Source of the DNA: Bartonella tamiae Th239
GTDB taxonomy: Bacteria > Pseudomonadota > Alphaproteobacteria > Rhizobiales > Rhizobiaceae
Length of the DNA stretch: 64,000 bases
Reading direction: 5' to 3'
NCBI RefSeq assembly: GCF_000278275.1
Contig: NZ_JH725147.1
Location: 856,849-920,848, forward strand
Of the stretch, positions 389 through 15,694 are shown one piece after another (positions within the stretch are counted from its first letter, which is position 1; each line of letters starts with the position of its first letter). Position numbers and translations under genes: made by a program. The notes under the pieces were generated by a model. It was not told the DNA's origin, ran no database searches, and was given only the letters and a program-made list of their open reading frames with translations.

Positions 389-758
389 CAATATACCGGC
401 AATTTAGTTGATATCCATCATCACACCTTTTTTCGTGCGATAAAGCAATCTGAATATTGGAAGGTTATAAGCTCTTAAAAAAGCACTCGTGGAATACGAC
501 ACTATTTTTGGAATGATAGGCTCTATCAGTTGTTGTATATTTAGATGATACACGCATTTCATGCAACCCTAGTTTTGCAGAAAAGGCTTATTGGCGATTT
601 GTGTTAATTGGCTTCACTATGCTGGATGTTTTAGGTTTTGACGGGAAGCATATCCAGCGTTCATTCAGTAATTGGCGTAATGGCTAGGGGTAATCCCCCC
701 AATAAATAAAGGGATTTAGAAGTAGAATTTTCTCTTCATACTGATTGAGGAGATTTTG

Positions 759-1022
759 ATGAAGACGAGCAGATTTAGCGAAGCGCAGATCCTTTCCATT
801 ATTCGCCAGGCGGAAGGCGGTGTTCCTATATCCGAGCTTTGCCGGGAACATGGCATGAGCACAGCTTCTTTTTACAAGTGGTGGGCGAAGTATGGTGGGA
901 TGGATGCGTCGATGATCAGCCAGATGAAGGCATTTGAAGATGAGAACCGGCGGTTGAAGAAGATATATGCCGAGATGAGCACGCAGAACGAGTTGCTCAA
1001 GGAGGCGCTTGGAAAAAAGTGA
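759..1022 (+). CDS. IS3-family transposase OrfA (HTH subunit)
   Basis: The 87-residue protein starts [20 protein letters not shown] and carries the helix-turn-helix segment [20 protein letters not shown]. It ends with a leucine-zipper-like stretch (about residues 55-85) closing in ALGKK. This is the DNA-binding OrfA of IS407-type IS3 elements. The ATG at 759 is preferred over the TTG at 756 because GAGGAG lies at a suitable distance upstream. The gene ends in the motif GGA AAA AAG TGA, where the frame can slip into orfB. OrfA alone usually acts as a regulator, and the OrfAB fusion acts as the transposase. Confidence 0.92.
1013..1019 (+). promoter_or_regulatory. Programmed -1 frameshift heptamer A AAA AAG between orfA and orfB
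   Basis: Six A residues and a G lie in the orfA reading frame as A-AAA-AAG, directly before the TGA stop. Slipping back one base continues reading at GTG (1019) into orfB. This is the standard slippery heptamer of IS3 elements, which yields the OrfAB transposase. Confidence 0.8.
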
Positions 1023-1840
1023 CGCGGCCATCTCAACGCCGGGAGATGGTCGGGAAAGTTGGGACATCACGTGGGGTGAGCATTGCATTGGCTTGCCGCA
1101 CCTTTGTTGTCAGCGAGACGTGTTATCGTTACAGCCCGAAGCTGAACGAGGAGAATGAGCAGATCGCCAACTTGCTGATCAAGTTGACGCGGGCACGCAA
1201 GAGCTGGGGCTTCGGGCTATGCTTTCTCTACTTGCGCCTGGGGCATCGCTGGAACCATAAACGGGTATACCGCATCTACCGCGAGTTGAAGCTGAACTTC
1301 AGGATCAAGCCACGCAAGCGCTTGAGGCGGAACAAACCGAATGCCTTGACTGTACCGGATGGGCCGAACATGGTTTGGTCCATGGATTTCATGGCGGATC
1401 GCCTGGAATATGGCAGGCCATTCCGGCTGTTGAATGTTCTGGACGATTTCAACCGCGAGGGGCTGGGCATGGAGGTGGACTTTTCCCTTCCTGCTGAGCG
1501 CGTCATCCGCAGCCTGAACCAGATCATCGACTGGCGCGGCAGGCCATCCGTGATCAGGGTGGACAACGGTCCCGAATATATCAGTGGTAAACTGAAGAAA
1601 TGGGCCGAAACGCAAGGAATTGCCTTGAACCACATCCAGCCTGGGAAGCCGCAGCAAAATGCCTATGTCGAGCGTTTCAATCGTACCGTCCGACATGAAT
1701 GGCTCGACCAATACATCATTGAGAGCATCGAGGAGGCACAGGAATTCGCCACACAGTGGCTATGGACTTACAACAATGAACGGCCCAATATGGTCATTGG
1801 CGGCATAACACCCGCACAGAAACTGAAAATGACCGCGTGA
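1019..1840 (+). CDS. IS3-family transposase OrfB (DDE integrase domain)
   Basis: The 273-residue protein has an N-terminal HTH_21-like region (about residues 45-105, ending in [10 protein letters not shown]) and an rve integrase core. The catalytic residues are visible: D in WSMDFMAD, D in [10 protein letters not shown], and E in [12 protein letters not shown]. The C-terminus ([19 protein letters not shown]) is the usual IS3 ending. The nominal GTG start overlaps the orfA stop, and the natural product is probably made by -1 frameshifting. The gene looks intact. It is more G+C-rich than the chromosome, in keeping with recent arrival. Confidence 0.93.
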
Positions 1841-1878: not shown

Positions 1879-2790
1879 GATGTTTCACCCGTCTGGGCGT
1901 GAGCACGTATTCTCTTTACAGCTGGATGAAGCGTTTTGGCAGTTCGGCAAAAGCAATGGCTCAGGATGATCAATCGTCAGAGATCAGGCGATTGAAGCAG
2001 GAATTGGCCCGTGTTACCGAGGAGCGTGACATCTTAAAAAAAAAGCCACCGCGTACTTCACCAAGGATGCAAAATGAAGTACGCGTTTATCAAAGCGCAT
2101 CGTATGCAATTTTCTGTGCGTGCTATGCTATGTGCCTTATGCTTTGTGTCAATCCCAGTGGATTTTACGCATGGCTGAAGCAGCCACCACCTATATCAAG
2201 ACATATAAAGGATTTTCCTATCTGGCCGTTGTAATTGACCTATTCTCCCGGCGTGTTGTCGGCTGGTCGACGCAAGCGCGTCAAACAACAGAGCTTGTTT
2301 TACAAGCGTTACTTATGGCCGTATGGCGGCGCAAACCAACGCAACTGGTCATGATACATTCAGAATAAGGTTCCCAGTTTACCAGCATGGAATGGACGTC
2401 ATTCCTTAAGTGGCAAAATCTTGAACAGAGCATGAGCAGCTGGGGCAACTGGACATCTCTAAAAACCTATTTTTTGTAACAATGTGAGTAAGATTTCTAT
2501 CTTTTTAAACTCTATTTGTTCCGGATTATGCCTATTCTGGTTGTTGTTTGTTAAATTTCGTTTTCTGGCTGTCTAGGTTTATAGAGGCGTTCAACTGCCA
2601 CGATAATGCGGTTGCGGAGAGTTTTTTCAGTCTGCTCAAACGTGAACGCATTCGTCGCAAAACATATAAAACACGATAACAGGCAAGACAGGACATATTC
2701 GACTATATCGAGATGTTTACAATCCGCAGCGCAAACACTCTAAAAATGGTATGCTGTCACCAGCAAACTTTGGACAAAAATACATATTGA
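1879..2790 (+). pseudogene. Decayed IS3-group transposase (orfA/orfB remnants)
   Basis: Fragments of a second, unrelated IS3 element can be read in several frames. From 1890 there is an orfA part, RLGVSTYSLYSWMKRFG, followed by EIRRLKQELARVTEERDILKK; in another frame it closes with the normal ATAYFTKDAK ending. From 2073 comes an orfB start (MKYAFIKAHRMQFSVRAM), a frameshift, and then VNPSGFYAWLKQPP. A large internal deletion leads to KGFSYLAVVIDLFSRRVVGWS and LVMIHSE, followed by a stop where D is expected. After a foreign stretch of about 130 bases, CHDNAVAESFFSLLKRERIRRKTYKTR resumes near 2597 and decays by 2790. The start of orfA is missing, cut off by the intact IS at its left. It is non-functional. 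Confidence 0.85.
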
Positions 2791-3366
2791 ACACGATGGG
2801 TTTCCAACCAACTCGGGGCTATTCTGATTATCAGCACCAATGCCGACAAAGCGATCAAACTGTGTCATAGTCCCTTGCCTCTTTCTTATGATCCTGGGCC
2901 ATAAACACCATGCAACTTGTACGTGATCAAGAAAAGAGAAAATGCTACAAAGCTAAAAATCGTGCTTGAGGCACAAGAGGTGTACGGTATGCATCTTCCG
3001 TCATCTCATGTTAAAATAGCAGATGACGGGATCATTATACAACAACTCCAATACATAAGATGTGTCCATCTGGCGCACACGGCGCAGCAGGTATCTGTCA
3101 AGGTCTTGAGGGACACATTGGGGGATGATTTAAAGGGTACTTTAAAGCCACATTTAGTTCGGGTTCAGAAGTATTGATTCGCATGTAATCAATAAGGCCT
3201 TCTTTATATAAGAGGCGGTTTAATGCTGCACGCGATAATCATAGAATGCCCTATTGGCATTTTAGGACAATTTTATGGCGTATTTTCGGCTATTATGAAG
3301 TTTCAATCAATAGTAATTTTGTTTGGCCATTAATAATAGTGGTTTCTTTTAGAAGGTGTGAACAAA
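2791..3366. other. Non-coding stretch upstream of the RiPP precursor
   Basis: About 580 bases between the transposase wreckage and the precursor gene. I see no convincing gene. The only open frame (2917-3177) needs a TTG start, has no ribosome-binding site and resembles nothing I know. The last 150 bases are very A+T-rich and must hold the promoter of the peptide locus. AGAAGGTG before the ATG at 3367 is a good Shine-Dalgarno sequence. Confidence 0.5.
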
Positions 3367-3519
3367 ATGTCAAAACTCAAATCAGAAATTAACACAAACA
3401 ACCATAACAATGCCGCTGATGATCTTGTTGAACTCTCTGAAGCCACAATCAAGAAACTGGATGCAGCCGGCGGCAGAGGCCAAGGTTATGTTCGCTTCAT
3501 TTTCAGACGCAGTTTCTAA
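3367..3519 (+). CDS. Putative RiPP precursor peptide with aromatic-X-X core motifs (triceptide/XYE-like)
   Basis: A 50-codon gene too short for ordinary gene finding. The acidic, Asn-rich leader includes DDLVELSEATIKKLDAAGG (residues 18-36), a helical leader ending in Gly-Gly at residues 35-36. The presumed core is RGQGYVRFIFRRSF (37-50). It holds tandem aromatic-X-X units: Y41-V-R, F44-I-F and F46-R-R. Known XyeA-type substrates have a similar layout, in which a radical SAM enzyme joins an aromatic ring to the beta-carbon of the third residue. A good ribosome-binding site (AGAAGGTG) precedes the ATG, and a radical SAM/SPASM gene follows 84 bases downstream on the same strand. The gene is seen directly. 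Modification, cleavage site and activity are inference. Confidence 0.8.
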   Translation: MSKLKSEINTNNHNNAADDLVELSEATIKKLDAAGGRGQGYVRFIFRRSF

Positions 3520-3528
3520 TACTTAATT

Positions 3529-3565
3529 CAACGAGGCAACCATCCGATGGCTGGTTGCCTCGTTG
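3529..3565 (+). terminator. Perfect 14-bp hairpin between precursor and maturase genes
   Basis: CAACGAGGCAACCA and its exact complement TGGTTGCCTCGTTG flank a 9-base loop, nine bases after the precursor stop codon. The following sequence (TGATTTATG) is only weakly T-rich. It probably acts as a partial terminator or as an mRNA-stabilising end, giving more precursor than maturase. Such hairpins are common after RiPP precursor genes. Confidence 0.7.
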
Positions 3566-3603
3566 TGATTTATGATTAGACATGATACAGGGGTGACTAA
3601 ATA

Positions 3604-4782
3604 ATGAGCAATGTAGCAAGCAAGTTGAATGTTTTGGAAATCATCCTTAAGTTGACAGAACGATGCAATTTGAATTGCACATATTGCTATGTTTTCAACA
3701 AAGGAGATTATGACGAAACAAGCAGTCAGGCATTGATAAGTGATAATTCTGTTAATGATGTCATAGATTTCGTGTTAAATGCAATCGAAAGTTATGAATT
3801 AAAATTGGTCAGAATTATATTCCATGGAGGGGAGCCTTTACTCTATCCTAAGAAAAAATTTGATAATTTATGCAATTCTTTGAAGGCATTAGAATCAGTT
3901 GACACGTCAATTACGCTTAGCCTACAAACAAACGGGGTGTTGATTGATGAAACGTGGGTAGAGATATTCTCCCGCCATGATGTAACAGTTGGCATTTCTC
4001 TAGATGGCAACAAAGAAATGAATGACCAATACCGATTAGATAAGAAAGGTCGTAGTAGTTATGAGCGGTCTATAAAAGGATTAAGATTGCTACAAGAGTC
4101 GTATAATCAAAATAAATTTTCTCATTCTCCATCAATTCTGATGGTAGCAAATTGCGAGAATGACATTGATACCCTTTATGATCATGTATTTAATAATTTA
4201 GGAGTATCAAGTTTTGATATATTATTACCAGACGATAATTATTTAGATGAAAGCCGTCCAAGCGACGACCTTATGGGTAAATACTTTACTAGGTTATTAG
4301 ATTTATATCTTAATGATGAACGTGATGTATTCATCCGTTTATTCGATGCTCCAATTTACATACTCAACTCTAATAGCATGGACTTTCTAGGGTTTAGTGC
4401 GCGAGTACACAAAATGATGGTATCTCTTACTATCAATACTGATGGTTTATTGTATGTTAATGATGTCTTGAAGCCAACTGGCGCCTATTTAGCGAGCGCA
4501 ATCGGCAATATCAAAGACTTCAAATTAGAAGATTTTATGGCTAGCCAACAATACAAAATGTATATTTCTGCCACTGAATATGTGCCAAGCGAGTGTCAAG
4601 ATTGCATCTGGAGAAATCCTTGTTCGGGCGGTGCCTTGCAAAATCGCTATTCAAAAGAGAATGGATTCAGTAATAAAACGATTTATTGCGGAACCAATCG
4701 CAGCATATTATCAAGGGTATCGGAATATTTGATTATCAAAGGTGTTGATGAGTCGAAAATAATGAGTAATATCGGTTTATGA
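3604..4782 (+). CDS. Radical SAM/SPASM peptide maturase
   Basis: The 392-residue protein carries the radical SAM cluster motif C21-N-L-N-C25-T-Y-C28 in LTERCNLNCTYCYVF. The glycine-rich SAM-binding segment FHGGEPLLY follows near residue 73. The C-terminal SPASM region (about residues 320-370) has CQDCIWRNPCSGG and a final Cys in TIYCGTN, enough to bind auxiliary iron-sulfur clusters. The length fits peptide-modifying SPASM enzymes such as XyeB. An AGGGGTG ribosome-binding site lies nine bases before the ATG. The gene directly follows a small precursor gene, so the predicted job is cross-linking aromatic residues of that peptide in the cytoplasm. It is A+T-rich compared with the island genes around it. 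The enzyme class is certain; the exact chemistry is inference. Confidence 0.92.
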   Translation: MSNVASKLNVLEIILKLTERCNLNCTYCYVFNKGDYDETSSQALISDNSVNDVIDFVLNAIESYELKLVRIIFHGGEPLLYPKKKFDNLCNSLKALESVDTSITLSLQTNGVLIDETWVEIFSRHDVTVGISLDGNKEMNDQYRLDKKGRSSYERSIKGLRLLQESYNQNKFSHSPSILMVANCENDIDTLYDHVFNNLGVSSFDILLPDDNYLDESRPSDDLMGKYFTRLLDLYLNDERDVFIRLFDAPIYILNSNSMDFLGFSARVHKMMVSLTINTDGLLYVNDVLKPTGAYLASAIGNIKDFKLEDFMASQQYKMYISATEYVPSECQDCIWRNPCSGGALQNRYSKENGFSNKTIYCGTNRSILSRVSEYLIIKGVDESKIMSNIGL

Positions 4783-4831
4783 GATATAAAATTTCCTTGA
4801 TTTTAATAGTTATTTCGGATAAACTTAAATC

Positions 4832-5722
4832 ATGTATAGAATATACGCTTTATTATTTTCTTCCTATCTAGTAGTTTTTGCCAATAGTGCAGCCGCGGAT
4901 ATGATACGATTTCCTCTATCGTATGATGAATATGGAGCTCCAGTTGTTGAGCTAGAGGTGTCCGGAGAGAGGAAAAGATTCATACTAGACACTGGATTCG
5001 AATATACTATGGCCCTTGCCCCGGCGGATATAGAGAAAATGAATAGCTCTTTATTGGCACTAAAATCAGAGAGAGCAGTAAATGTAGCTGGACAAGTGAC
5101 ATCGGACAAACGATTTCTTTTTAAAAATTTTGAATCTAATCGCTTAAAAGTGTCGAACGCAATCATCATCGAGAACGCTAATTGGGCCACAACGGTTGAT
5201 GATAATGGTACAGTCAAAAGTTCCGATTCTTCCTCAATCAATATGGAATATTCCATAGCAGGTAGAGGGTTATTCAATGACTATCTAGTAATTTTTGATT
5301 TCAAACAAAACGAAATATTACTATATTCCGGTTCTGACCGTGAAAAATACATAGCTTCAAACGTCTTGAAAGAAATCGACGGTAGTATCAACAAAAAAGG
5401 AATTGAGATCAATGCTATAGTGGATGATAAATATGTCGTTTTAGTTCTTGACACAGGCTCAACAATGTCAGTGGTAAAACTCACCGGCTCTCATAAATAT
5501 GGTGTAACCGACGAATGTCATTGGCAATATCCTAATATCGTGGATAAATTCTGTTACGTTGGTTCATTTCAGTATGATTCAAAGAGTGCTGCATATCCAA
5601 TATTAGTCTGGAATCGTATTTTAGAAAACTTTGATACTGATGGGTTGCTTGGGATGGACAACATTAAAAGCACTATATTCATAATTGACTTTATTGATAA
5701 AAAGGTATATCATAAAGGTTAA
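4832..5722 (+). CDS. Exported retropepsin-like aspartic peptidase with two DTG motifs
   Basis: The 296-residue protein begins with a signal peptide (MYRIYALLFSSYLVVFANSAAA), so it is likely periplasmic. Two aspartic-peptidase signatures are visible: RFILDTGFEYTMAL near residue 50 and VVLVLDTGSTMSVVKL near residue 205. Later hydrophobic-glycine segments (GRGLFNDYLVIFDF and DGLLGMDNIKSTIFIIDF) look like the flap and closing strands of each lobe. This suggests a single chain holding both halves of the active site, as in bacterial two-lobed relatives of retropepsins. It lies 49 bases after the radical SAM gene in the same direction. No transporter or C39 peptidase is present, so this enzyme may remove the leader of the modified peptide. 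The fold call is fairly strong; the substrate is inference. Confidence 0.8.
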   Translation: MYRIYALLFSSYLVVFANSAAADMIRFPLSYDEYGAPVVELEVSGERKRFILDTGFEYTMALAPADIEKMNSSLLALKSERAVNVAGQVTSDKRFLFKNFESNRLKVSNAIIIENANWATTVDDNGTVKSSDSSSINMEYSIAGRGLFNDYLVIFDFKQNEILLYSGSDREKYIASNVLKEIDGSINKKGIEINAIVDDKYVVLVLDTGSTMSVVKLTGSHKYGVTDECHWQYPNIVDKFCYVGSFQYDSKSAAYPILVWNRILENFDTDGLLGMDNIKSTIFIIDFIDKKVYHKG

Positions 5723-5818
5723 ATTATCTAACGTATGTTCAAAAGCACACAAGCATCAGCGATTAGTCACTGAGTTATTATGTGGTAGTTTCCATCGTTA
5801 AGTGCAATACTTGGTTGT

Positions 5819-6394
5819 TTGAAGCATAATATGATATCTGTTCCAAATTCGTTTAGGGGCTGGCATAGAGTGGTGTTTGGAATTTCAGGCATTTTCGCGG
5901 CTGCAAGAGCAGAAACTTTGAATGTGACTTGGTGTCGTGATGAAAATACAGGTTATGTGGTTGAATTTGATTCGACGGTTAAACTTATTGATCTTAAAAA
6001 ATGGTTTGAATCCCGTGGTTTTAAGCCAAAAATTTTCTTTCCTGATGTTGAAGTCCATGAATTTAAAGATCCTCACCATCCGCGTTATGCTCCAAAACTG
6101 GCTGCTGTTGTAGGTGCATGGGAAGCTATTAAAGAAGCAGATCTAAACAAGACTGTTAAACAAACACTTGTAAAGTGGCTAAATTTAAATGCGGCTAAAT
6201 ATGAGCTTTTGGGTGAAGACGGCTTACCGAGAGCGAATATAATTCAAGAATTAGCAGGGATTGCCAATTGGGAACCTAGCGGAGGTGCTCCAAAGACCCG
6301 TTCCAAAGAAATTGCAGAAGATAAAAATACAGAAATTATGAGTGAAATGGATATTAAAAATGTCTTTGACGATGATTCAGAAATACCATTTTAA
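5819..6394 (+). CDS. Hypothetical island protein near the AlpA/primase module
   Basis: A protein of about 191 residues without a function I can name. The first codon is TTG (5819); an ATG at 5831 is equally possible, and neither has a good ribosome-binding site. The middle part (residues 90-155) has HPRYAPKLAAVVGAWEAI and later NIIQELAGIANWEPSGGAPKTR. I recognise this pattern from uncharacterised proteins of integrative elements and plasmids, but it carries no known catalytic motif. The C-terminus is very acidic and ends DDDSEIPF, a tail resembling single-stranded-DNA-binding-protein tips. The first 30 residues do not look like the rest and may be non-native, perhaps joined by the rearrangement that brought in the RiPP genes. 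Confidence 0.65.
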   Translation: MKHNMISVPNSFRGWHRVVFGISGIFAAARAETLNVTWCRDENTGYVVEFDSTVKLIDLKKWFESRGFKPKIFFPDVEVHEFKDPHHPRYAPKLAAVVGAWEAIKEADLNKTVKQTLVKWLNLNAAKYELLGEDGLPRANIIQELAGIANWEPSGGAPKTRSKEIAEDKNTEIMSEMDIKNVFDDDSEIPF

Positions 6395-10611: not shown

Positions 10612-13600
10612 ATGAGCGAGAAACTGGAACAGACACCCCTTGAAAAGGTCTTGACCCGTTTTCGCAATGCTGCGGTGTCTGAGCGTGAAAAAGGCACCTA
10701 TTTTGAAGAGCTGATGATCGCCTATCTCAAGCATGAACCCTTTTATGCTGATCTTTATTCAGATGTGTGGACGTTTAAAGACTGGGCTTTGTCTCATGGC
10801 AAAGATGGCAAGGATAAGGGGATTGATCTTGTCGCTCAGACAAAAAAAGGTGAACTACACGCCATACAATGCAAATTTTACGCACCTGATCATAAAATCA
10901 GTAAAACAGACATCGACAGCTTTATGTCGGCATCCGGTCAAAGACCATTCGTCAATCGCTTTATTGTTTGCACGACCAATCACTGGGGTGATAATGCCGA
11001 GGCGATGCTGGATAACCAGCATGTTCCTGTTAGCAAGATTGATCTTGCCGCTCTTGAACAAAGTGTGATCGACTGGGAGCAATATGCACCCGATAAAGCC
11101 CTTGTCATTCATGAAAAGAAAAAACTGCGCCCGCATCAGGAAATAGCGTCTAAAAACGTATTGAAAGGTTTGGAGTTAGCCGATCGTGGCAAGCTCATTA
11201 TGGCTTGTGGTACGGGTAAAACTTTTACCAGCCTCAAGATTGCCGAGGCACAGGCAGGCAAAGGTAAACGTGTCTTGTTTTTGGTGCCAAGCCTTGCCTT
11301 GTTAAGCCAGACATTGACTGAATGGACGCAACAGAGCGAAACCAAATTACATAGCTTTGCTGTCTGTTCGGATGCTGAAGTTGGTAAAAAACGCGATAAA
11401 AAAGATGATGACAGCGTGCAGACCTTTGTGCATGAGCTGCAATATCCCGCCACGACCGATGCCGAAAAACTGGCAGAAGAGATGACTGCTTGGCATGAAG
11501 ATGATGCCATGAGCGTGATCTTCTCGACCTATCATTCTATTGATGTCATTGCAAAAGCACAAAAAGAATATGGGTTACCAGAATTTGATCTTGTTATTTG
11601 TGACGAGGCGCACCGCACCACTGGCCAGACCTATGACGGTGATGAGGAAAGCGCTTTTGTCCGTATTCATAACAATGATTTCATCAATGCTGCCAAGCGC
11701 CTTTATATGACCGCCACACCGCGCATCTATCGCGATGATGCCAAGCTGAAAGCCGAGGGTGGTGATGTTGTCCTTTATTCAATGGATGACGAGACCATCT
11801 ATGGCAAAGACCTTCATGTCTTGACCTTCTCGGAAGCGGTGCAGCGCGGCCTTTTGGTTGATTATAAGGTGATCGTGCTGACCGTTGAAGAAAGCCAGAT
11901 CAATCGCCGTCTACAAAATCTTTTGAAAGACGAGAATAACGAGGTACGGGTCGATGATGCAGCCAAGATTGTTGGCTGCTGGAAGGCGCTTTCAAAGCAG
12001 AACCTGACCGAAAGTCTTGAAGGTGATGTCAGTCCTATGCAACGCGCTGTTGCCTTTTGTCAGGTGATTGATCGCAAAAAGAGCAACAAGGTTGGCTCAC
12101 TGCAAATTGCCAATATGTTTCAAGATGTGGTGAAAGAATACCAGCGCACCGCAACCGATGAGGAAGAAACGTCGGTGAAACTGCATTGCGAGGCGCGCCA
12201 TGTTGATGGTGGGATGAATGCCAGCGAGAAGGAAGAGAAAATCCACTGGCTTAAATCTAAAACGCCGGAAGATACATGCCGTATTCTATCAAATGTGCGC
12301 TGCCTGTCTGAAGGTGTTGATGTGCCAGCCCTTGATGCTGTGTTGTTTTTAACGGCACGCAACAGTCAGGTTGATGTGGTGCAATCGGTCGGGCGTGTCA
12401 TGCGTAAGGCAGAAGGTAAAACCCGTGGCTATATTGTCTTGCCGGTGGTGATCCCTTCAGGGGTGGAACCGCATGAAGCCTTGAATGATAATAAGACTTA
12501 TAAGGTTGTCTGGCAGGTTTTACAGGCCTTGCGTTCGCATGACGATAAATTCGATGCGATGATTAACAAAATGGACTTGGTTGGTTCTGATCCGCAAAAA
12601 ATGGAAGTCATTGCTGTTACCGATATGGGCAAACGCCGCAAAAAGGTGATGAAAGAAGCAACAGGCCTTGCCAAGGGCAAAAGCAATCTAGGAAAGGCGG
12701 CCCCCGCTTCTGCTGGTGGTGTAGTAGCTGAGCAAATCGAGTTTGTTTATGAGGTTACCGAGCTTGAACGCGCCATCACCGCCAAATTGGTTGAAAAGGT
12801 TGGCAACCGCCATCATTGGGAAGAATGGGCAAATGACATTGCCAAGATTGCCCGCACCCATATTGACCGCATCAAGGCTATTTTAAAAAACCCTGAAAAC
12901 ACAAAGGCAATTAGCACATTTAAGGAATTTTCTGCCGAGTTGAAAGACGATCTGAATGATGCGCTCAGTGATGACGAGATCATCGAGATGCTGGCACAGC
13001 ACCTTATCACCAAGCCGGTATTTGATGCGTTGTTTTCTGGTTATAGCTTTGCAGACCATAACCCGATGTCGCAGGCGATCCAGAAAGTGCTGGATGCACT
13101 CAATGAGTTTAACATTGAAAAAGAATCGACAAGCCTTGATAAATTCTATCGCAGTGTTGCCATGCGTGCTGATGGCATCAATACAGCGGAAGGCCGCCAG
13201 AAGCTGGTTGTCGAGCTTTATGACAAGTTTTTCCGCAATGCTTTTCCAAAAATGACCGAGCGGCTGGGCATTGTCTATACACCGGTTGAGGTGGTGGACT
13301 TTATCCTGCACAGCGTCAATGAAGTGTTAAAAGCTGAATTTAACCAAAGCTTGGGCAGTGAAGGCGTGCATATTCTTGACCCATTCACCGGCACCGGCAC
13401 CTTTATCACAAGACTGATGCAAAGCGGCCTGATAGCGTCTGAAGACTTGCCGCGTGTCTATAAAAGCCAACTTCATGCCAATGAGCTGGTGCTGCTGGCC
13501 TATTATATTGCTGCCATCAATATTGAATCGACCTATCATGCCCTTGTCGGTGGCGATTATGCACCTTTCCCTGGTATTTTGCTCACCGATACATTCCAGA

Positions 13601-15510
13601 TGAGCGAAAAAGGTGACATGATTGACGCCATTCTGGTCGACAACAGCCAGCGCCGCAAAGACCAGATGGCCTTGGATATCAAGGTCATCGTCGGCAATCC
13701 GCCTTATTCTGTTGGTCAAGGTAGTGCCAATGATAATAATCAAAACCTTGCTTACACGAAGCTTGACCAGCGCATTGAAGATACTTATGCAAAACTTTCA
13801 AATGCGGCGCTTTCAAAAGGGCTCTATGACAGCTATATCCGCGCCATTCGCTGGGCATCAGACCGAATTGGTGAGGCAGGTGTCATCGGTTTTGTGACTA
13901 ATGCCGGTTATGTCGAATCCTCATCGGCTGATGGGTTGCGTAAATGCTTGGCGCAAGAATTTTCCAATATCTATATTTTCCATTTACGAGGTAATGCCCG
14001 CACATCAGGTGAGCAACGCCAAAAAGAAAAGGGCAATGTCTTTGGTTCCGGTTCTCGCGCGCCGATTGCCATTACCATTCTGGTGAAAAATCCTGCTGCC
14101 AAACAGCATGGCAAAATCCACTTTCATGATATTGGCGATTATCTCACCACTGAGCAGAAGCTGGAAAAAATTGCTGAGCTTACAAGCATTGTAGGCTTAA
14201 AAGACCAATGGCAGACCATCACCCCAGATGCTCACAATGATTGGCTTAACCAGCGCGACGATACCTTCAATGATTTTATCGTTATGGGTGATAAAAAAGA
14301 TAAAACTATTGTCAAAATTTTTGAAAACTTTTCTCTTGGCATTGCAACGAATAGAGATGCATGGGCTTATAATTCTTCTAAACAAAAAATGTCTAATAAT
14401 ATCTCAAATATGATTGATTTTTATAATTTTGAACTTTGCAAATTTGAAAAAGAAACAATAAATTTGACTAAGAAACAAAAAGAGGAGAAAGTTAATTTTC
14501 TTATTGATAACAATCCCGCTAAAATAAGCTGGACGGTGAATTTAAAACAATCATTGATTGGGCGAAATCGGCTAACTTTTGAAAATAGGAAAATCATAAA
14601 AAGTTTATATCGCCCATTTTGTAATCAATATTTATATTATGACCGGAATTTGAACGAACGTGTTCTTCAAATGCCGCGCATCTTTCCTGATGCACAAGCT
14701 GAAAACTGTGTGATCGCTGTATCTGGAAGCGGGGCAAAAAATGGATTTTCAGCATTTATCTCAGCAGATATACCTGACATTCAGCTCATGTTTAACGGCC
14801 AATGCTTTCCGCTTTATCTTTATGAGCAAGAGCAGGCAGGTGAAGGTTTATTTGCAAGCGAAGCAACACTGCAGTTAAAACGTCGTGATGCGATAACGGA
14901 TGCGGGGTTGAAACATTTTCATGATGCCTATCAGGATACCACCATCACCAAGGAAGATTTGTTTTATTATATCTATGGCCTTTTGCATTCTGAAAATTAT
15001 CGCGCCCGCTTTGCTGATAATCTCATGAAAGAATTGCCGCGCATTCCTGCCGTCAAAAAACTGGATGACTTTAAGGCTTTTTCAAAAGCTGGCCGCGCTT
15101 TGGCAAAATTGCACCTGAATTATGAAACGGTTGAGAAATACCCTGCCAACATCATCACCAAAAATAAAAATATGGAAGATGGCGACTTTTATGTCGAGAA
15201 GATGAAATATGGCCGCAATGGCAAGGATAAAGATCTAACGACCATCATCTATAACGACAAGATCACAATCACGGATATACCGCTTGAAGCCTATGACTAT
15301 ATCGTCAATGGCAAACCGGCGATTGATTGGGTGGTGGAGCGGCAGGGCGTGCGTACCGATAAAGCCAGCGGCATTGTCAATGATGCCAATGACTGGGCAA
15401 TTGATACCATGCACAACCCAGCCTATCCGCTGGAACTGCTTTTAAGAATCATCACTGTTTCACTGGAAACGATGACAATTGTCCGCAATTTGCCGAAACT
15501 GGATATCTAA
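10612..15510 (+). CDS. Single-chain type ISP restriction-modification enzyme
   Basis: One 1632-residue polypeptide carries all restriction-modification activities. An Mrr-like nuclease domain comes first, with DKGIDLVAQTKKGELHAIQCK (split as GIDLVAQ and AIQCK, residues 72-92). A superfamily 2 helicase/translocase follows, with ACGTGKT (about 198), DEAH (about 331), TATPRIY and QSVGRVMRKAEGK (about 590). Next come a helical coupler and an N6-adenine methyltransferase with DPFTGTGTF (about 922) and GNPPYS (about 1028), then a C-terminal target-recognition region. The order and length match LlaGI/LlaBIII-like type ISP enzymes, which cut DNA after head-on collision of translocating molecules. No separate specificity subunit is needed. 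Residues about 1225-1345 are strikingly A+T-rich relative to the rest. The gene lies alone next to the tRNA as the last cargo gene of the island. All catalytic motifs are present. Confidence 0.93.
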   Translation: MSEKLEQTPLEKVLTRFRNAAVSEREKGTYFEELMIAYLKHEPFYADLYSDVWTFKDWALSHGKDGKDKGIDLVAQTKKGELHAIQCKFYAPDHKISKTDIDSFMSASGQRPFVNRFIVCTTNHWGDNAEAMLDNQHVPVSKIDLAALEQSVIDWEQYAPDKALVIHEKKKLRPHQEIASKNVLKGLELADRGKLIMACGTGKTFTSLKIAEAQAGKGKRVLFLVPSLALLSQTLTEWTQQSETKLHSFAVCSDAEVGKKRDKKDDDSVQTFVHELQYPATTDAEKLAEEMTAWHEDDAMSVIFSTYHSIDVIAKAQKEYGLPEFDLVICDEAHRTTGQTYDGDEESAFVRIHNNDFINAAKRLYMTATPRIYRDDAKLKAEGGDVVLYSMDDETIYGKDLHVLTFSEAVQRGLLVDYKVIVLTVEESQINRRLQNLLKDENNEVRVDDAAKIVGCWKALSKQNLTESLEGDVSPMQRAVAFCQVIDRKKSNKVGSLQIANMFQDVVKEYQRTATDEEETSVKLHCEARHVDGGMNASEKEEKIHWLKSKTPEDTCRILSNVRCLSEGVDVPALDAVLFLTARNSQVDVVQSVGRVMRKAEGKTRGYIVLPVVIPSGVEPHEALNDNKTYKVVWQVLQALRSHDDKFDAMINKMDLVGSDPQKMEVIAVTDMGKRRKKVMKEATGLAKGKSNLGKAAPASAGGVVAEQIEFVYEVTELERAITAKLVEKVGNRHHWEEWANDIAKIARTHIDRIKAILKNPENTKAISTFKEFSAELKDDLNDALSDDEIIEMLAQHLITKPVFDALFSGYSFADHNPMSQAIQKVLDALNEFNIEKESTSLDKFYRSVAMRADGINTAEGRQKLVVELYDKFFRNAFPKMTERLGIVYTPVEVVDFILHSVNEVLKAEFNQSLGSEGVHILDPFTGTGTFITRLMQSGLIASEDLPRVYKSQLHANELVLLAYYIAAINIESTYHALVGGDYAPFPGILLTDTFQMSEKGDMIDAILVDNSQRRKDQMALDIKVIVGNPPYSVGQGSANDNNQNLAYTKLDQRIEDTYAKLSNAALSKGLYDSYIRAIRWASDRIGEAGVIGFVTNAGYVESSSADGLRKCLAQEFSNIYIFHLRGNARTSGEQRQKEKGNVFGSGSRAPIAITILVKNPAAKQHGKIHFHDIGDYLTTEQKLEKIAELTSIVGLKDQWQTITPDAHNDWLNQRDDTFNDFIVMGDKKDKTIVKIFENFSLGIATNRDAWAYNSSKQKMSNNISNMIDFYNFELCKFEKETINLTKKQKEEKVNFLIDNNPAKISWTVNLKQSLIGRNRLTFENRKIIKSLYRPFCNQYLYYDRNLNERVLQMPRIFPDAQAENCVIAVSGSGAKNGFSAFISADIPDIQLMFNGQCFPLYLYEQEQAGEGLFASEATLQLKRRDAITDAGLKHFHDAYQDTTITKEDLFYYIYGLLHSENYRARFADNLMKELPRIPAVKKLDDFKAFSKAGRALAKLHLNYETVEKYPANIITKNKNMEDGDFYVEKMKYGRNGKDKDLTTIIYNDKITITDIPLEAYDYIVNGKPAIDWVVERQGVRTDKASGIVNDANDWAIDTMHNPAYPLELLLRIITVSLETMTIVRNLPKLDI

Positions 15511-15609: not shown

Positions 15610-15694
15610 TGGTGCCCAGAAGAGGACTCGAACCTCCACACCTTGCAGTACAGATACCTGAAACCTGCGCGTCTACCAATTCCGCCATCTGGGC
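15610..15694 (-). tRNA. tRNA-Leu (anticodon CAG)
   Basis: On the minus strand an 85-base tRNA folds with acceptor arms GCCCAGA and TCTGGGC, an encoded 3' ACCA, a long variable arm typical of leucine, and the T-loop GGTTCGAGTCC. The anticodon loop TTCAGGT gives CAG, reading CUG. The 3' end points toward the mobile island on the left, the usual orientation for tyrosine-integrase target sites. Confidence 0.97.

What the first reader, a model, noticed from the sequence alone, without database searches (positions are those of the whole stretch)
3367..5722. Compact RiPP locus: cyclophane-type precursor, radical SAM/SPASM maturase and exported aspartic peptidase
Three consecutive same-strand genes form a peptide natural-product locus inside a mobile island. 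The precursor has a Gly-Gly leader end and an aromatic-X-X core. The maturase has CX3CX2C and SPASM cysteines. The third gene is a signal-peptide-bearing two-lobed aspartic peptidase. Known XYE/triceptide loci usually use a C39 peptidase-transporter; none is seen here. The combination suggests that the leader is removed outside the cytoplasm, by a peptidase class rarely tied to RiPPs. This is my main candidate for an undescribed system.
Basis: partly seen in the sequence, partly recalled or inferred. Interest (0 to 1): 0.82.

Follow-up and report, generated by a model that had tools for sequence, protein, structure and literature searches.

The report
Stripped-down xenorceptide-type peptide gene locus
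A Bartonella-like bacterium carries, on a mobile island, three genes related to those that make xenorceptide antibiotics in insect-associated bacteria (a precursor peptide, the enzyme expected to ring-close it, and an exported pepsin-like protease) but not the usual exporter, which makes it a natural test of what that protease does.

Summary
The three genes exist at the stated coordinates. They form a divergent xye (xenorceptide-type triceptide) locus. The maturase falls in a 99/98-supported clade with XyeB of Xenorhabdus, Photorhabdus, Yersinia and others but scores 393 bits against the 450-bit NCBIfam XyeB cut-off. The precursor shares the xye leader start (MSKLKSEI), a Gly-Gly and a following hairpin; its core YVRFIFRRSF fits short xye cores (WVRASWTKSF, WVKFGWKKKF) and the darobactin tail (WNWSKSF).

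What is unusual here is the missing exporter: no HlyD or C39 gene in the locus, no C39 domain in the genome. The locus sits in an 18-kb tRNA-Leu island, where congeners carry an integrase. No XyeB-clade maturase was found in 36 congeners, no peptidase in 70. Verdict: new variant of a known kind, either stripped but working or recently crippled.

The parts
3367..3519 (+). XyeA-like precursor: leader 3367-3474 ending in Gly-Gly, core 3475-3516 (RGQGYVRFIFRRSF)
   Evidence: the reading from the upstream start at 3358 adds 3 residues
3525..3570 (+). hairpin between precursor and maturase genes (attenuator-like)
   Evidence: fold of 3510-3605: -32.9 kcal/mol, z -4.6; stable folds at the same place in 18 of 22 loci, window included
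3604..4782 (+). XyeB-clade radical SAM/SPASM maturase
   Evidence: TIGR04496 393.2 bits, E 9.5e-118, cut-off 450; tree
4832..5722 (+). two-lobed pepsin-like aspartic peptidase with an apparent signal peptide; Asp53 codon 4988-4990, Asp207 codon 5450-5452
5819..6394 (+). truncated island gene; homology to the 237-aa congener protein begins at 5867, its first 76 residues not matched (right-hand scar of the xye segment)
756..1840 (+). IS3-type transposase pair on the left flank
   Evidence: PF01527, PF00665/PF13683
1899..2679 (+). broken second insertion-sequence transposase
   Evidence: rve domain in one fragment only; frames in pieces
15610..15625 (-). attachment repeat: 3' end of tRNA-Leu(cag) (15610-15694); the other copy is L130:16480-16495, 2,370 bases left of the window

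Best explanation
This is a horizontally acquired, exporter-less xye-type triceptide locus. Inferred working: the maturase binds the MSKLKSEI... leader and closes three-residue cyclophanes at Tyr-Val-Arg and Phe-Arg-Arg in the core (predicted loss of 2 Da each); the leader is cut off at or near Gly-Gly; the product, ending in FRRSF, is a rigid beta-strand mimic of outer-membrane-protein C-termini that acts on BamA of other Gram-negative bacteria, as xenorceptides and darobactins do. The exported pepsin-like peptidase is a standard xye component that works on the peptide outside the cytoplasm (trimming or leader removal). Since this genome has no C39 exporter, the peptide must leave by a general host route with the peptidase as the only dedicated protease, unless it is not made in finished form at all. 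Shown: gene content, kinship, conserved catalytic motifs, core resemblance, missing C39, island setting. Inferred: cross-links, target, peptidase substrate, export route.
For: Maturase in the XyeB clade, 99/98 support; TIGR04496 is its best family. Peptidase homologues in 16 of 18 other clade loci. Precursor profile rank 1 of 783. Fold downstream of the precursor with z of -2.0 or lower in 18 of 22 loci, window included. Core YVR-FI-FRR-SF lines up with Providencia WVR-AS-WTK-SF, Sodalis WVK-FG-WKK-KF and X. griffiniae WFK-LD-WKK-SF and with darobactin A WNWSKSF / B WNWTKRF (PMC13067283, passages). XncB makes Trp-Arg/Asn and Phe-Asn links and YhhB makes Tyr-Arg links (PMC11002830, passages). 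Xenorceptides act on BamA (PMC12971899, passages). No C39 in the genome.
Against: The curated cut-offs for XyeB (393 of 450 bits) and XyeA (no match) are not met. The XyeA profile E-value of 0.026 is modest and rests on the leader start only. The core has no Trp, while all 17 kin cores used for the profile have at least one. No exporter and no immunity gene were seen in the locus; the genome has one BamA and one weaker match below the cut-off, taken for TamA-like. No transcription or product data.
Confidence: 0.55

Rival explanations
1. Crippled remnant: a full xye locus reached the island and then lost HlyD and the C39 exporter in an IS-driven or deletion event; precursor, maturase and peptidase are still intact because the loss is recent, but no active peptide leaves the cell.
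For: An exporter gene is present in 16 and HlyD in 17 of 18 other clade loci (C39 domain in 15) and both are absent here. The segment ends in a scar: the next gene has lost its start, and the integrase seen in congeners is gone. IS debris on the left flank. Gly-Gly is kept although no C39 enzyme is there to read it. Such decay happens in the clade: in Providencia L037 a deletion fuses a shortened HlyD to an exporter without its C39 part while the peptidase stays whole.
Against: All three genes here are full length with the catalytic motifs kept, whereas L037's maturase end is frameshifted too. The maturase end branch is long (1.64), so the lineage has diverged far without losing the frame, though when the exporter was lost is not known.
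Confidence: 0.33
2. The peptidase is mainly a self-protection factor in the periplasm (degrades or clips peptide that comes back), and leader removal is done by general host proteases, as assumed for darobactin (recalled).
For: In relatives with a C39 exporter the leader can be cut during export (recalled logic of C39 exporters), which leaves a periplasmic peptidase free for another job; no other immunity candidate was seen in the locus and no second BamA above the cut-off.
Against: Cyclophane peptides resist proteolysis (recalled); 2 of 18 clade loci have no detected peptidase (L026, L027), and L026 keeps its precursor and exporter.
Confidence: 0.2
3. A triceptide with a non-antibiotic role (signal, metal or redox peptide); the darobactin-like tail is coincidental.
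For: Target not tested; XyeB-like maturases elsewhere go with quite different repeat-type cores (L033-L035, L038, L040), and one further precursor-like ORF in the clade (L032 5925-6122) does not fit the tail pattern.
Against: Of 17 kin precursors, 13 end in Phe and the other four in Ile or Leu, after aromatic-x-basic-x (Asn in place of the basic residue in L020); xenorceptides, the product class of this clade by name (recalled link), act on BamA.
Confidence: 0.15

Closest known systems
xye / xenorceptide loci (X. bovienii NZ_FO818638, annotated xyeA, xyeB)
   Same: precursor with MxxLxxEI leader start, Gly-Gly and aromatic core; XyeB-clade maturase (37% identity); aspartic peptidase with an apparent signal peptide (26% identity); hairpin after the precursor
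   Different: no HlyD and no C39 exporter; Tyr/Phe in place of Trp; below the XyeA and XyeB cut-offs; alphaproteobacterial host
short-core xye loci (Sodalis L031, X. griffiniae L032, Providencia L037)
   Same: few residues between Gly-Gly and the first aromatic; two aromatic-x-basic triads two residues apart; C-terminal Phe
   Different: they have Trp; L031 and L032 keep HlyD and a C39 exporter, L037 keeps a truncated pair
Darobactin A/B (WNWSKSF / WNWTKRF)
   Same: aromatic-x-basic-[SR]-Phe end, predicted ring at the same place, beta-signal-like strand
   Different: different maturase family (DarE model gives only 99.6 bits here), Trp-Trp ether bridge, no dedicated peptidase (recalled)
YhhB triceptides
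   Same: Tyr-Arg and other cyclophanes by a related maturase (second family for this protein, 260 bits)
   Different: 260 bits against a 445-bit cut-off; the maturase scores higher to XyeB and branches with xye loci (no YhhB was in the tree)

Membership tests
XyeB maturase (NCBIfam TIGR04496) | score of at least 450 bits | tested here: not met
   393.2 bits. Six clade mates scanned: five score 459.8 to 722.5; L037, whose frame is cut short, 442.6
XyeA precursor (NCBIfam TIGR04495) | score of at least 33 bits | tested here: not met
   no match at E up to 10; short-core L037 scores 16.4 and L031 none; L014 69.3, L045 72.9
XyeB clade in the wider, phylogenetic sense | maturase branches with xye maturases | tested here: met
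   19-row clade, 99/98; inner position unresolved, long branch
xye-type locus | adjacent precursor with Gly-Gly leader and aromatic-x-x core | tested here: met
xye-type locus | C39 exporter and HlyD adaptor | tested here: not met
   none in the first 12 kb of the window or by tblastn in its first 16 kb; no C39 in the genome
xye-type locus | two-lobed aspartic peptidase gene | tested here: met
triceptide (three-residue cyclophane RiPP) | C-C link between an aromatic residue i and residue i+2 | not testable with these tools
   needs mass spectrometry and NMR
BamA inhibitor of the darobactin/xenorceptide kind | binds the BamA lateral gate | not testable with these tools
   only the C-terminal pattern was compared
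pepsin-like aspartic peptidase | two lobes, each with a catalytic Asp-Thr-Gly/Ser | tested here: met
   Asp53-Thr-Gly, Asp207-Thr-Gly; fold Z 15-19 against two-lobed aspartic peptidases; activity not tested

The most novel reading that the evidence does not exclude
A self-sufficient minimal triceptide pathway in which an exported pepsin-like peptidase, not a C39 exporter, removes the leader of a BamA-directed peptide in the periplasm. As far as the searches here show, this would be the first aspartic peptidase with a maturation role in a RiPP, here without any dedicated transporter, in a Bartonella-like host.
Probability: 0.25. Interest if true: 0.72.

Novelty: new variant of a known kind. Interest (0 to 1): 0.5.

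Why it matters
Xenorceptide-type peptides are BamA-directed antibiotics, a sought-after class. A pepsin-like peptidase is conserved in 16 of 18 other loci of this clade, yet a term search of a 2023 review of RiPP leader proteases (PMC10885120) finds no aspartic peptidase. This locus keeps the peptidase and lacks the exporter, so it separates the two functions and makes the role of the peptidase directly testable. It also gives a Trp-free core and an alphaproteobacterial host for a clade whose other 18 rows are Gammaproteobacteria.

Tried and rejected
A single-sequence scan of genome contigs found no relative; the two-row alignment scan worked. Viral contigs gave nothing; the 20 phage rows listed (of 78) are 20-27% identical, and those that carry a name are sulfatase-maturase-like or a generic radical SAM protein. 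A new peptidase class unique to this locus was rejected. The peptidase as an ordinary congener gene was rejected: 1 of 71 genus genomes, the window's own. The one same-genus maturase hit (G017, 24% over residues 14-371) is an HxsB, 637.8 bits, beside an HxsC. A second BamA above the cut-off as immunity was not found. No homologue of the congeners' integrase was found in the window or in the 19.9 kb to the left. Extra copies of 2400-6000 in the genome: none apart from the hairpin matching itself. Literature: of the founding triceptide papers (Nguyen 2020, Sugiyama 2022) I saw only the references, so whether they describe the aspartic peptidase could not be checked; the listings showed nothing on it. 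PMC10300848 (listed with all three terms, a review of cyanobacterial antifungals) was not opened. Papers opened, passages only: PMC10885120, PMC12971899, PMC11002830, PMC13067283, PMC12281569.

Rows dropped: of the 80 loci only L020-L055 (36) were examined for neighbours; L056-L099 (44) were left out as more distant maturases (identity 22-31%, except an 82-residue match in L072). The alphaproteobacterial loci have about 1.4 kb of flank, so the lack of a peptidase or exporter there is not informative. The tree took 36 of the 46 sources examined; my list left out L034, L035, L038, L040, L050, L053, L055, L104, L106 and L107 (L050 and L055 have broken maturase frames). No precursor was picked out for clade loci L023 and L027.
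Full report
What is there. The maturase's best curated family is XyeB (TIGR04496, 393.2 bits, E 9.5e-118), below that model's 450-bit cut-off; YhhB and FxsB follow at 260 and 219 bits. The peptidase hits Pfam Asp_protease_2 above its cut-off. The precursor hits no model.

Kin. A plasmid of Xenorhabdus bovienii carries annotated xyeA and xyeB, then a 'hypothetical protein' that is a homologue of our peptidase (25% in tblastn; 26% in the alignment), then HlyD and a C39 exporter. Among 72,556 plasmid records only three hold a homologue of the peptidase at E 0.001. A genome scan gave 80 maturase loci; I examined the 36 best (L020-L055) with L014, L017 and seven alphaproteobacterial loci. In a maximum-likelihood tree of 36 maturases the window protein falls in a 19-row clade (99/98) whose other 18 rows are loci of Xenorhabdus, Photorhabdus, Yersinia, Serratia, Sodalis, Providencia, Vibrio and Biostraticola; its place inside is unresolved and its branch is long, 1.64. 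Of those 18 loci, 16 have a peptidase homologue, 17 an HlyD gene and 16 an exporter gene in the fetched flank; Pfam finds the C39 domain in 15 of the 16 exporters. The exceptions: L023's contig ends after HlyD; L026 has no detected peptidase; L027 lacks all three; in L037 a deletion fuses a shortened HlyD to an exporter without its C39 part, and the end of the maturase is frameshifted. Outside the clade, Duganella L043 also has peptidase, HlyD and exporter, and L042, L051 and L053 have weaker peptidase homologues. So the aspartic peptidase is a regular part of xye loci, and the lack of the exporter is what sets the window apart. The whole genome has no C39 domain at E 0.001, while 8 of 14 control genomes ring. 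HlyD-type proteins exist elsewhere in the genome (6 matches) but none in the locus.

Among 385 alphaproteobacterial genomes 47 match the XyeB model at E 0.001 and none passes its cut-off; the best after the window's own is G331 at 343.6 bits. G331, G135, G349 and G321 fall outside the xye clade in the tree.

The peptidase. Both lobes keep a catalytic Asp-Thr: the first motif is DTG in all 20 seed homologues, window included; the second is DTG in 16 and DTA in four (L014, L025, L045, L055). Of the three more distant extras of that call, L042 has DLG in the first lobe, and L051 and L053 have DSG in the second. All 18 members of alignment A4 match Asp_protease_2. AlphaFold2 on 18 sequences gives mean pLDDT 80.9, pTM 0.79; the model matches two-lobed aspartic peptidases, first a Bacteroides fragilis putative endopeptidase (9iy9, Z 18.8, rmsd 3.3, 241 aligned), then endothiapepsin and pepsin (Z about 15-16) (Foldseek). 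A shared fold does not show the substrate.

The precursor. Leader starts of most kin read M[SR]xLxxEI; the window reads MSKLKSEI. A profile of 17 kin precursors (window excluded; 16 of the 18 clade loci plus L055) ranks it first of 783 window ORFs, E 0.026, next 0.85; the aligned part is the leader start only. The core ending is more telling. Long-type cores read WVNAFARWSKSF and the like; short-type cores read WVRASWTKSF (Providencia), WVKFGWKKKF (Sodalis), WFKLDWKKSF (X. griffiniae). The window reads YVRFIFRRSF: the same spacing with Tyr and Phe for Trp. Of the 17, 13 end in Phe, two in Ile and two in Leu. The window precursor is the only one of 783 window ORFs ending in [WFY]x[KR][SR]F. Darobactin A is WNWSKSF and B WNWTKRF, and OMP beta-signals are GxxPhixPhi (PMC13067283, passages). 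Xenorceptides are described as BamA inhibitors; xenorceptide A2 adds a strand to the barrel (PMC12971899, passages). XncB forms Trp-Arg/Asn and Phe-Asn links, YhhB Tyr-Arg (PMC11002830, passages). From these I infer, and have not shown, Tyr-Arg and Phe-Arg cyclophanes and a BamA-directed product. No mature xenorceptide sequence was available to compare.

Shared regulation. A strong hairpin lies between precursor and maturase genes (3525-3570; -32.9 kcal/mol for 3510-3605, z -4.6 against dinucleotide shuffles). Of 22 loci folded over the 80 bases there, 18 have z of -2.0 or lower against 100 mononucleotide shuffles; L029, L032, L037 and L043 do not. This fits an attenuator that keeps precursor in excess (inference).

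Setting. The host belongs to a genus of small genomes (1.4-2.9 Mb among the 71); its DapB is far closer to PDB 3ijp than to any other (3.7e-103 against 9.6e-64), which I recall as Bartonella henselae, so the host is probably a Bartonella relative. Of 36 congeners one gave a maturase hit at E 0.001, G017, and that is an HxsB; the peptidase is in 0 of 70 other genus genomes. The locus lies in an island bounded by a 16-base repeat of the tRNA-Leu 3' end, 17,979 bases apart (chance expectation about 9e-6). It holds mobilisation genes, IS3-type elements, replication-type genes and a type ISP restriction-modification enzyme. Four stretches from congeners G005 (two), G446 and G007 share the right half from base 5990 or 6606 on at about 80%. 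Three of them have a tyrosine integrase confirmed by Pfam just before it (L149, L150, L151), the fourth (L148) one by look, where the window has the xye genes and a neighbour gene whose first 76 residues are not matched. The same 16-base repeat stands just before the integrase in L150, and also occurs in L148. So the xye segment arrived by, or was followed by, a rearrangement that removed the integrase.

Reading. Kinship to xye loci is firm (about 0.9). Whether the locus works is open: full-length genes with their motifs argue for function; the missing exporter, the scar, the IS debris and the decayed Providencia locus argue for recent crippling. If it works, export must use a general route and the peptidase is the only dedicated protease. 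In one neighbouring maturase branch a Rickettsiaceae MAG (L039) has an M61-family peptidase with an apparent signal peptide next to its maturase, which hints that exported peptidases beside such maturases recur in another catalytic class; this was not followed.

Limits. The founding triceptide papers were not seen, so I cannot say whether the peptidase in xye loci has been described; the listings showed nothing on it.

Noticed in passing
window 10612-15510: 1632-aa type ISP (single-polypeptide) restriction-modification enzyme at the tRNA-Leu end of the island; congener G446 (L150) appears to hold a second, about 67-71% identical partial copy on the other side of its integrase.
   Followed up: partly
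L037 7004-11458: Providencia alcalifaciens BIGb0506 xye locus in decay: maturase end frameshifted, HlyD and exporter fused by a deletion that removed the C39 part, peptidase still whole.
   Followed up: partly
L039 74-1750 (-) and L017 6169-7743 (+): XyeB-like maturases next to apparently exported proteins: an M61-family peptidase by Pfam in L039; in L017 a 524-aa protein with a HExxH motif by eye but no Pfam match.
   Followed up: partly
L033, L034, L035, L038, L040, L102: XyeB-like maturases of Proteobacteria MAGs and one unnamed alphaproteobacterial genome with repeat-type precursors (repeated GGNFVSAP units) upstream.
   Followed up: no
L050 7067-10458; L055 6977-8169: xye loci with maturase frames in pieces (a record named Martelella alba, and Serratia rubidaea); the L050 name sits oddly with genes close to those of Enterobacterales.
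   Followed up: no
window 2917-3177: 86-aa ORF between the broken IS and the precursor gene with no Pfam or NCBIfam match.
   Followed up: no
L015 5941-6828; L016 4989-5858: Aspartic peptidase homologues in Paracoccus aminophilus (pAMI4) and Vibrio campbellii with no maturase seen nearby, so this peptidase family may also serve other systems.
   Followed up: no
L004 278-2916 (-): Another congener (G017) carries an HxsB/HxsC pair of the His-Xaa-Ser system.
   Followed up: no
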